A stretch of 64,000 nt of DNA from Maribacter arenosus (GTDB lineage: Bacteria; Bacteroidota; Bacteroidia; Flavobacteriales; Flavobacteriaceae), in NCBI RefSeq assembly GCF_014610845.1, contig NZ_JABTCG010000002.1, forward strand, positions 62,001-126,000, read 5' to 3'. The notes below the pieces were generated by a model that was given only the letters and a program-made list of their open reading frames with translations, did no database searches and was not told the origin of the DNA. Positions 21,116 through 58,656 of this stretch are shown here, piece after piece. Within the stretch, counting starts at the first letter, position 1. Every line of letters starts with the position of its first letter. A program made the translations under genes and the position numbers.

Positions 21116-21383
21116 AATATCATGTTTTAAGTTTTATAGCGGCTCTCGCTATTTGTTGGTACAAAGATGATGATTAATTTGAGCTTGGTTTTGCTCAAAT
21201 AATAAAAAGGTTAACGTTAATGCAAGTATCGTATAAATTCAACTTCGATAAACCACAAAGTAAATTGGCTAGATGCCAATCCCTTGACCGACAGGCCTCT
21301 ATTTAGAACTATTGAAGGAATGACTATTTCGTCGCAACACCCAAACAAAAAAGCCCCTCGATCAAGAGAAGCTTTTTAGAATG
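21116..21383. other. Upstream region of the YtxH operon and start of the repeat array
   Basis: No gene seen. Near the right end, AAAAAAGCCCCTCGATCAAGAGAAGCTTTTT (about 21346-21377) is terminator-like and marks the leftmost end of the tRNA-tail repeat array. Confidence 0.4.
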
Positions 21384-21540
21384 TACGGGCGGGGAGGCTC
21401 CCTTCGACTCCGCTCAGGACAAGCTTCTCGTCTCTCACCAACTGAATTAAAGTTTGTCCAATAAAAAAAGCCCATTTGTGTTACCCATGTGTTACCCAGA
21501 ACTAAAAAAGCCGACTCCTAAAAGTCGGCTTTCCCCTTTG
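21384..21540 (-). repeat. Diverged copy of the tRNA-tail repeat
   Basis: It begins with TACGGGCGGGGAGGCTC, which is almost the 3' end of the neighbouring tRNA-Leu, followed by the CTTCGACTCCGCTCAGG core and a terminator-like hairpin (21504-21533, GCCGAC/GTCGGC). Compared with the two perfect copies downstream it is 42 bp longer and contains an 11-bp direct repeat, TGTGTTACCCA twice (21477-21498). Confidence 0.7.
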
Positions 21541-21770
21541 TACGGGCGGAGAGACTCCCTTCGACTTCGCTCAGGACAGGCTTCTCGTCTCTCGCAAGTT
21601 GGTTCAAAAATATTCCAATAAAAAAGCCTCCCATTTTTGAGAAGCTTTTTCAATGTACGGGCGGAGAGACTCCCTTCGACTTCGCTCAGGACAGGCTTCT
21701 CGTCTCTCGCAAGTTGGTTCAAAAATATTCCAATAAAAAAGCCTCCCATTTTTGAGAAGCTTTTTCAATG
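21541..21770 (-). repeat. Two perfect 115-bp tandem repeats carrying a tRNA-Leu 3' end
   Basis: Units 21541-21655 and 21656-21770 are identical in all 115 positions by eye. Each starts with TACGGGCGGAGAGACTC, a one-mismatch copy of the last 17 bases of the adjacent tRNA-Leu. It continues with the dispersed-repeat core CTTCGACTTCGCTCAGGACAGG and ends in the terminator-like AAAAAAGCCTCCC...GAAGCTTTTT. The second unit abuts the tRNA 3' end. Confidence 0.85.
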
Positions 21771-21852
21771 TACGGGCGGGGAGACTCGAACTCCCACACC
21801 TTGCGGCACTAGATCCTAAGTCTAGCGTGTCTACCAATTCCACCACGCCCGC
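21771..21852 (-). tRNA. tRNA-Leu (anticodon UAG)
   Basis: Read on the minus strand, the sequence folds into a class II tRNA with acceptor GCGGGCG paired to CGCCCGT and a G-T first pair. The D arm carries GGTAGAC, the anticodon stem is CTAGA/TCTAG around loop CTTAGGA (anticodon TAG), and there is a short variable arm and a T arm GGGAGTTCGAGTCTCCC. The discriminator is A and CCA is not encoded. Directly downstream (lower coordinates) lies a repeat array built from its own 3' end. Confidence 0.95.
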
Positions 21853-39768: not shown

Positions 39769-39775
39769 AACAGAT

Positions 39776-39829
39776 TGTTAGTTGTTAGTTGTTAGTTGTT
39801 AGTTGTTAGTTGTTAGTTGTTAGTTGTTG
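39776..39829. repeat. Heptanucleotide tandem repeat (GTTGTTA)n
   Basis: About seven to eight head-to-tail copies of GTTGTTA, nearly perfect, directly upstream of the ruvC start (minus strand, reading as TAACAAC units). Confidence 0.9.
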
Positions 39830-58626: not shown

Positions 58627-58656
58627 AAGAAGAAGAAGAAGAAGAAGAAGAAGAAG
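58627..58656 (+). repeat. (AAG)10 microsatellite at the ccoG ribosome-binding position
   Basis: Ten perfect AAG units end one base before the ccoG ATG, in the place where a ribosome-binding site would be. Copy-number change would shift spacing by 3 nt per unit. Confidence 0.95.

What the first reader, a model, noticed from the sequence alone, without database searches (positions are those of the whole stretch)
21384..21852. tRNA-Leu followed by an array of copies of its own 3' end fused to a dispersed repeat and a terminator
Two perfect 115-bp units and one diverged unit each start with 17 bases matching the tRNA 3' end with one or two mismatches, followed by CTTCGACTTCGCTCAGG and a terminator-like hairpin. 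Possible origins are scars of repeated element integration at the tRNA end, or expansion of a tRNA-terminator cassette. The perfect identity of the two units suggests recent amplification. The transcript of the tRNA may read through all units.
Basis: partly seen in the sequence, partly recalled or inferred. Interest (0 to 1): 0.55.

Follow-up and report, generated by a model that had tools for sequence, protein, structure and literature searches.

The report
tRNA-invading units that replace tRNA ends
Beside a leucine tRNA gene, two copies of a 115-base unit have pushed the gene's original end away and supplied a replacement, and similar units at other tRNA genes carry a small gene for a DNA-cutting enzyme, which suggests a little-noticed family of selfish elements that live in tRNA genes.

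Summary
The array is real. tRNA-Leu(TAG) lies on the minus strand (21852-21770); downstream follow two identical 115-bp units and a diverged third.

Relatives show how it formed. In seven same-genus genomes the tRNA is followed directly by a terminator that in the window lies behind the two units. Exactly 230 bp (21555-21784) is inserted in the T-loop. It brought a new tRNA 3' end and terminator and displaced the old ones.

Each displaced end is preceded by a conserved "cap", a T-arm with its loop replaced. A database scan gave 89 distinct caps; 66 of 72 comparable ones match their own tRNA's 3' end at 13 or more of 15 bases (nine amino acids).

At tRNA-Asn the start of the same cap follows a small GIY-YIG nuclease gene. 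Of 13 close homologues of that nuclease, 12 lie 3' of tRNA-Asn(GTT). Nine of 34 tRNA genes of this genome have partial copies beside them.

Best reading: an ORF-less, tandemly amplified form of GIY-YIG homing-like units that invade tRNA genes and restore the gene end. Insertion is shown; cutting and mobilisation in trans are inferred. My searches of one open-access library found no description.

The parts
21770..21852 (-). tRNA-Leu(TAG), intact; T-stem GGGAG/CTCCC (GAGAG/CTCTC in the compared same-genus genomes)
21555..21784 (-). Inserted block, 230 bp = two 115-bp units, between T-loop TTCGAG (21790-21785) and the displaced native 3' end
   Evidence: empty-site alignment; coordinates
21670..21784 (-). 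Unit 1: new tRNA 3' end, terminator-like hairpin (about 21735-21765), spacer, cap
21555..21669 (-). Unit 2: tRNA 3' end copy (CTCTC type), terminator-like hairpin (about 21620-21650), spacer, cap
21664..21708 (-). Cap of unit 1: stem GAGAGAC / 31-nt loop / GTCTCTC (T-arm with its loop replaced)
21549..21593 (-). Cap joining unit 2 to the displaced native end
21539..21554 (-). Displaced native tRNA-Leu 3' end (TCTCTCCGCCCGTACA)
21503..21532 (-). Displaced native terminator (GCCGACTTTTAGGAGTCGGC plus T-run), which directly follows tRNA-Leu in seven same-genus genomes
21392..21436 (-). Cap of the diverged third unit
21351..21398 (-). Third tRNA 3' end copy (CTCCC type) with an AAGCTTCTC-type terminator-like hairpin; possibly an older layer

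Best explanation
The array is a tandem pair of short, ORF-less mobile units that inserted in the T-loop of tRNA-Leu(TAG). Each unit starts with a copy of the tRNA 3' end from nucleotide 60 on plus a terminator, so insertion restores a complete tRNA gene; it ends with a cap, a T-arm whose loop is replaced by a conserved 31-nt sequence, which now precedes the displaced original 3' end. The units belong with longer units of the same layout that encode a small GIY-YIG nuclease. I infer homing-like movement: a tRNA-specific nuclease cuts an uninvaded tRNA gene and repair from an invaded allele copies the unit in. ORF-less units are either moved in trans or are deletion derivatives, and multiply by unequal recombination between identical units. 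Shown: insertion point, replaced and displaced ends, tRNA-specific tails, the start of the same cap behind GIY-YIG genes at tRNA-Asn, and tRNA-specific placement of homologues of that nuclease. Inferred: cutting, copying by repair, mobilisation in trans.
For: Empty site: window flanks joined at the T-loop align, apart from single-base differences, with tRNA-Leu loci of G001, G002, G003, G005, G006, G008 and G010, including the GCCGAC terminator. Second empty site: tRNA-Ile of G286 empty, G437 occupied in its four matching operons. Tail specificity: 66 of 72 comparable GTDB elements match their own tRNA tail at 13 or more of 15; the best match to tails of other tRNA types is 12 of 15. Watson-Crick pairing of the arms against arms of other tRNA types: nt 60 69/86 vs 0.55, nt 62 72/86 vs 0.53, nt 63 60/86 vs 0.26. 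GIY-YIG link: at tRNA-Asn the cap start CTTGGACGAGAA follows the GIY-YIG ORF in L320, L322 and L279 (in L322 CTTGGACGAGAAGTTTATCC); 12 of 13 close homologues of that nuclease lie within about 430 nt 3' of tRNA-Asn(GTT), same strand. ORF-bearing tandem units with T-loop inserts at tRNA-Leu(GAG) in two same-genus genomes. Own genome: 9 of 34 tRNA genes have partial copies (8, Pro).
Against: No GIY-YIG-bearing unit with this cap was seen at tRNA-Leu(TAG), Thr or Gln; only 2 of the 76 GTDB element stretches hold a GIY-YIG ORF, one of them on the 5' side. The caps fold no better than shuffles. No cutting activity was tested. No match in phage or plasmid collections that could point to a vehicle. 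Six of 89 elements have no tRNA upstream and are not near the start of the stretch held.
Confidence: 0.62

Rival explanations
1. REP-type repeats moved by a RAYT (Y1 transposase) inserted in T-loops of pre-existing tandem partial tRNA copies; the GIY-YIG genes are bystanders.
For: The core CTGAGCGNAGTCGAAGG also occurs in stretches without a tRNA in relatives; at tRNA-Asn it lies beside the cap, as a separate insert would; weak Y1_Tnp matches exist in this genome (30.5 bits).
Against: In this genome the pattern CTTCGACTNCGCTCAG occurs only in this array. Y1_Tnp matches were not found in 5 of 12 genus genomes, among them G004 (68% complete), which has a tRNA-Gln unit. The empty-site comparison shows that the replacement tRNA end came with the units.
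Confidence: 0.15
2. Scars of a tyrosine-integrase element (phage or island) that uses the T-loop to 3' end of the tRNA as attachment core.
For: The duplicated segment (T-loop to 3' end) is a typical integrase core (recalled). In G035 two tRNA-Leu-type arrays lie 57 kb apart.
Against: ORF-less units are short (67 bp at Ile; about 99-118 bp in the tandem arrays) and carry no integrase; one conserved cap occurs at tRNAs of nine different amino acids, unlike one integrase at one tRNA; no integrase was obvious at the G035 array edges (ORFs read by eye, not searched against families).
Confidence: 0.1
3. A host regulatory device: the units act as extra terminators, or as decoys resembling tRNA 3' ends for processing enzymes or integrases, kept by selection.
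For: The T-stem pairing of the caps is kept above control; a TATTTTTG string, resembling the Bacteroidota -7 motif (recalled), precedes caps in this genome at Leu and Gln (by eye).
Against: Patchy presence: 29 of 397 family genomes have the exact core tested; units at tRNA-Leu(TAG) are present in 1 of the 9 genus genomes whose locus was read; no fold stability beyond shuffles; no promoter found by scan (that scan does not cover Bacteroidota promoters).
Confidence: 0.08

Closest known systems
Mobile endonuclease ORFs (mORFs) that replace gene ends in fungal mitochondria (atp6 of Allomyces, atp6/atp9/cox2/nad3 of Glomus; PMC3630166, passages seen)
   Same: Order core gene - inserted foreign end - endonuclease ORF - displaced native end; the native end matches relatives without the element.
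   Different: Protein genes in mitochondria; no cap at the displaced end in the passages seen (the word hairpin does not occur in the main text). Here tRNA genes in bacteria; the window's form has no ORF.
SegB, GIY-YIG homing endonuclease of T-even phages (PMC13096335, abstract and section 10 read)
   Same: GIY-YIG homing nuclease linked to tRNA genes; drives tandem amplification of a tRNA-bearing segment.
   Different: Phage genomes; amplifies a segment with a full-length tRNA gene; no invasion of the T-loop with capped displaced ends in what I read.
E. coli tyrT 178-bp repeats with 19 bp of the tRNA-Tyr 3' end (rtT RNA; recalled, no source read)
   Same: Tandem repeats downstream of a tRNA, each with a copy of the tRNA 3' end.
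   Different: No sequence relation found: the Rfam scan of the locus gave only tRNA and a chance-level BTnc231 match.
REP elements / RAYT-associated palindromes (PMC3733652, passages seen)
   Same: Short repeat core that also occurs outside tRNAs in relatives.
   Different: Here at one position of tRNA genes, with tRNA-specific flanks; the exact core is not dispersed in this genome.

Membership tests
Homing-endonuclease gene-end replacement element (mORF-like) | Insertion at one site of the target gene with a replacement gene end; native end displaced downstream | tested here: met
Homing-endonuclease gene-end replacement element (mORF-like) | Replacement end differs from the native end (foreign source) | tested here: met
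   window: CTCCC and AAGCTTCTC terminator in front, CTCTC and GCCGAC terminator displaced. For tRNA-Ile the two tails are identical, so there it is not informative.
Homing-endonuclease gene-end replacement element (mORF-like) | Nuclease ORF inside the unit | tested here: not met
   the 115-bp window units have room for none. Present in units at tRNA-Asn whose cap starts the same way, L320 and L322; the L162 protein used as query has a GIY-YIG domain by Pfam. So the window unit is at most a non-autonomous relative.
Homing-endonuclease gene-end replacement element (mORF-like) | Nuclease cuts the uninvaded target | not testable with these tools
   needs biochemistry
REP/RAYT system | Many dispersed copies in the genome | tested here: not met
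   3 exact core copies, all in this array; variants at Gln and Met arrays
REP/RAYT system | RAYT gene present | tested here: inconclusive
   two 30.5-bit Y1_Tnp matches, each with one stop, in this genome; none in 5 of 12 genus genomes
tRNA-integrated island (tyrosine integrase) | Integrase gene inside the inserted DNA | tested here: not met
   insert is 230 bp, two 115-bp units
rtT / tyrT repeat | Match to a described RNA family | tested here: not met
   Rfam scan at E up to 1: tRNA and BTnc231 (18.2 bits, gathering 80.4) only

The most novel reading that the evidence does not exclude
A family of selfish units specialised on tRNA genes is common in Flavobacteriaceae. GIY-YIG nucleases with preferences for particular tRNAs invade the T-loop (3' units) or the 5' half around the D-loop (5' units), restore the tRNA with a carried gene end, and cap the displaced piece so that it no longer looks like a target. 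ORF-less relatives of about 67-118 bp share the cap and spread over tRNAs of many amino acids, replacing tRNA 3' ends and terminators as they go.
Probability: 0.52. Interest if true: 0.82.

Novelty: new variant of a known kind. Interest (0 to 1): 0.72.

Why it matters
It shows a tRNA gene being rebuilt by very small mobile units: the functional tRNA-Leu 3' end and terminator in this genome arrived with an insertion. It would explain partial tRNA copies and arrays beside tRNA genes in this bacterial family, gives a bacterial chromosomal counterpart of gene-end-replacing homing elements, and points to a set of nucleases that may distinguish individual tRNA genes. It also makes testable how ORF-less derivatives spread between different tRNAs while keeping a tRNA-matched stem.

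Tried and rejected
Rejected: simple tandem duplication of the local tRNA end with its own terminator. The copies in front carry a different terminator from the displaced native one. Rejected: an unusually stable RNA or DNA hairpin inside the cap; folds are no better than shuffles. A GNA-triloop reading of the core was considered by eye only. Considered and left open: each unit as its own small RNA gene (TATTTTTG before the cap at Leu and Gln, by eye); single units inside tRNA and rRNA operons without a terminator in front speak against it.

Led nowhere: phage and plasmid searches (no match); literature searches for the core sequence, GIY-YIG with palindromic and repetitive extragenic, Flavobacter repeat terms, each 0 papers; GIY-YIG with tRNA gene, repeat and Bacteroidetes gave 1 phage paper; the titles and abstract starts listed named no such unit in bacterial tRNA genes. 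The statement that I found no description rests on these searches of one open-access library only, with capped lists. The 57-kb stretch between two arrays in G035 was not explained.

Limits of counts. The GTDB pattern required GGGAGNC, so it can find only T-loops of TTCGAG type; 90 matches, 89 distinct; 75 with a tRNA upstream on the same strand, 72 comparable (3 cut by contig ends); the 6 below 13 of 15 are L116, L129, L143, L161, L173, L185. One search used 86 of 89. census: 28 GIY-YIG rows from the listed hits of six genomes; UvrC-like and 450-490 aa proteins and five fragments at G005:C5 were left out, and the hit list was cut, so 11 of 28 near a tRNA and 8 of 28 between inverted repeats are not exact genome totals; of 34 tRNA genes, 11 rows were printed; I dropped the Glu pair (two whole genes) and Thr(GGT) (a hit to another Thr gene), leaving 8 (Lys, Arg-ACG, Ala-GGC, Ser-TGA, Leu-TAG, Gln, Met, Leu-CAA); Arg-ACG is weak (2 of 16 mismatches there, 4 of 19); Pro(TGG) was added from reading. 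Controls: reversed tail 0, reversed head 0, tail on the wrong side 1, head on the wrong side 2; I did not trace the last three (the Glu pair would give some). tree: 54 rows, few columns, long branches, midpoint root, three labels (L193, L297, L054) set by hand and L280 set to unknown. My first tail-matching script had a wrong window; one search replaced it. Of the 12 tRNA-Asn stretches I read the sequence of 8 at most (one search shows L320-L325 without a gap in part, L328 and L330); the others rest on coordinates.

Full report
What is there. On the minus strand of the window lies tRNA-Leu(TAG), 21852-21770. Downstream follow two identical 115-bp units and, after a gap, a 70% alike third. The genome is probably a Maribacter: G006, of the same genus, has a contig of the same length (900,662) and the same three matches as Maribacter polysaccharolyticus in the named collection; this is an inference.

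How it formed. Eleven other genomes of the genus were searched with the tRNA and its upstream region. Nine stretches from eight of them were compared (G006 gave two; G004, G007 and G011 were not read). In seven genomes the tRNA is followed by CTCTCCGCCCGTACA and a GCCGAC...GTCGGC terminator. In the window this end and terminator lie behind the two units (21554-21503), while the intact tRNA carries CTCCC and another terminator. Joining the window flanks after T-loop TTCGAG (21790-21785) and at 21554 reproduces the empty site apart from single-base differences. The insert is 21784-21555, 230 bp, exactly two units. G009 has another terminator directly after the tRNA, and a second tRNA-Leu(TAG) stretch of G006 yet another. 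The tRNA's T-stem also differs from all nine stretches on its 5' side (GGGAG for GAGAG), as co-conversion or a compensating mutation would give. A second case: in one genus G286 has an empty tRNA-Ile in front of tRNA-Ala, and G437 carries a 67-bp unit in its four matching places, followed by the TATTTT that follows the empty site; the match behind the tail is short.

The third unit. Behind the displaced native terminator comes a third cap and tail, of CTCCC type, with an AAGCTTCTC-type terminator like that in G050 and G016 of other genera. It may be an older layer; I cannot order the events with certainty.

The cap. Across relatives the element reads [stem](A/G)CGAGAAG-nn-T(A/G)(C/T)CCTGAGCGnAGTCGAAGGGAG(T/C)[stem'], then the host tRNA's 3' end; there are variants. 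The 5' arm pairs with nucleotides 59-63 of the host tail. Watson-Crick pairs at nt 60, 62 and 63 are formed in 69, 72 and 60 of 86, against 0.55, 0.53 and 0.26 for arms combined from different tRNA types; nt 59 and 61 are nearly invariant (86/86 and 83/86; control 1.00 and 0.96) and so say little; nt 64 and 65 are only a little above control (30/86 vs 0.26; 20/86 vs 0.14); further out 33, 14, 18 and 11 of 86, without a control. The fold shows no excess stability.

Distribution. The exact core tested was found in 29 of 397 Flavobacteriaceae genomes (the group is the window's family, its name an inference). A scan of the GTDB species collection gave 76 stretches; the record titles name genera that I know as Flavobacteriaceae (recalled) or MAGs so labelled, apart from two labelled Flavobacteriales and one each labelled Bacteroidia, Bacteroidetes and Chlorobiota. 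Of 89 distinct elements, 75 have a tRNA upstream on the same strand; 66 of 72 comparable tails match that tRNA at 13 or more of 15 bases, 58 perfectly; tails of other tRNA types match at most 12 of 15. tRNAs: Thr(TGT) 42, Leu(TAG) 8, Gln 8, Asn 6, Met 4, Trp 3, Lys 2, His 1, Ile 1. Of the 14 without tRNA, 8 start within 250 bases of the edge of the stretch held and 6 do not.

Link to GIY-YIG nucleases. GIY-YIG genes are common here: PF01541 matches in 31 of 31 genomes, own one included (UvrC counted). Two kinds of small ones stood out. One lies between inverted repeats of TCGAGCGnAGTCGAG type (own genome: L088). The other lies at tRNA genes with partial tRNA copies: tRNA-His, Val, Leu(GAG) in two same-genus genomes as 364-bp tandem units, Phe as 378-bp tandem units, and 5' units at Pro and Leu(CAA), two of these in the window's own genome. 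In a 28-row census of six genomes, 11 lie within 700 nt of a tRNA and 8 between inverted repeats, with no overlap; 9 are neither. In a tree of 54 proteins the tRNA-borne and the repeat-flanked labels need one change, and 3'- versus 5'-unit labels two (few columns, long branches).

The closest link is tRNA-Asn. In L162/L279 the tRNA is followed by an ORF-less unit with our cap, then by a GIY-YIG gene and a decayed cap. Searching 397 family genomes with that protein gave matches in 268; of the 13 close ones (E below 1e-38) 12 lie 3' of tRNA-Asn(GTT) within about 430 nt, the exception L327 having no tRNA in the stretch and one stop. In L320 and L322 the GIY-YIG gene is followed by CTTGGACGAGAA..., the start of the same cap, and by its stem partner GTCCAAG, but the middle of the cap is another sequence and a CTGAGCG-type core lies beside it, in the tail. 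In L328 and L323 an ORF-less unit sits between the tRNA and the GIY-YIG gene. Other Asn stretches read show no clear cap behind the ORF (L321, L324, L325, L330). Of the other 17 stretches returned, 7 have a tRNA, six of them Arg with 5' or 3' copies.

Own genome. Of 34 tRNA genes, 3' end copies lie downstream of Lys, Arg(ACG, weak), Ala(GGC), Ser(TGA), Leu(TAG) and Gln, and 5' copies upstream of one Met and Leu(CAA); reversed controls gave none, wrong-side controls 1 and 2. Pro(TGG) has a disrupted copy with a GIY-YIG gene. At Met the 5' copies carry a variant of the same core in the D-loop.

Interpretation. The units behave like the gene-end-replacing mobile ORFs of fungal mitochondria (PMC3630166, passages), on tRNA genes; and SegB shows that a GIY-YIG homing nuclease can be tied to tRNAs and cause tandem amplification (PMC13096335, abstract and one section). 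The window's units fail the ORF criterion and so are filed only as non-autonomous relatives. What is not shown: cutting, copying by repair, and movement in trans. Against a simple local origin by deletion: no GIY-YIG unit with this cap was seen at Leu(TAG), Thr or Gln; GIY-YIG ORFs were found in 2 of the 76 GTDB stretches.

Noticed in passing
L064 1-427 (G000:C12:1-427): Second array in the same genome: four 111-bp-spaced units, the last cut by the contig end, behind tRNA-Gln(TTG), with the tRNA-Gln tail and matching stem.
   Followed up: partly
L213 (G000:C2, upstream of tRNA-Met(CAT)): Mirror-image case: two 106-bp-spaced copies of the upstream region and 5' end of tRNA-Met, each with an insert holding CTTCGACTAAGCTCAGGA at the D-loop.
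   Followed up: partly
L193 and L194 (G000:C20:178799-179011; G000:C12:261393-261590): GIY-YIG genes between a broken and an intact copy of tRNA-Pro(TGG) and tRNA-Leu(CAA); the second reads YVRMS where others read YVGQT or YIGQT, so it may be inactive.
   Followed up: partly
L088 1452-1840 (G000:C12:306525 region): GIY-YIG gene flanked on both sides, in inverted orientation, by TGTCCGGTCGAGCGCAGTCGAGACC; similar arrangement at 8 of 28 small GIY-YIG rows in six genomes. Looks like a mobile element of its own.
   Followed up: partly
G437:C1:1658383-1659783 and others listed: Tandem GIY-YIG genes at even spacing (four at 387 bp; elsewhere about 310-380 bp). Not read for tRNA copies.
   Followed up: no
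L350 and L351 (G035:C2:426500-485000): Two tRNA-Leu-type arrays 57 kb apart, only the first with the tRNA; no integrase seen by eye among the ORFs near the edges.
   Followed up: partly
window 21478-21500: Short tandem repeat GGGTAACACAT behind the displaced native terminator; similar tandem pairs (GGTACAACAT, GGTCAAACAA) at the same place in G006, G002 and G003 (by eye).
   Followed up: no
window 39775-39828 and 58627-58656: Perfect short-period arrays: TTGTTAG x 7.7 and AAG x 10.
   Followed up: no
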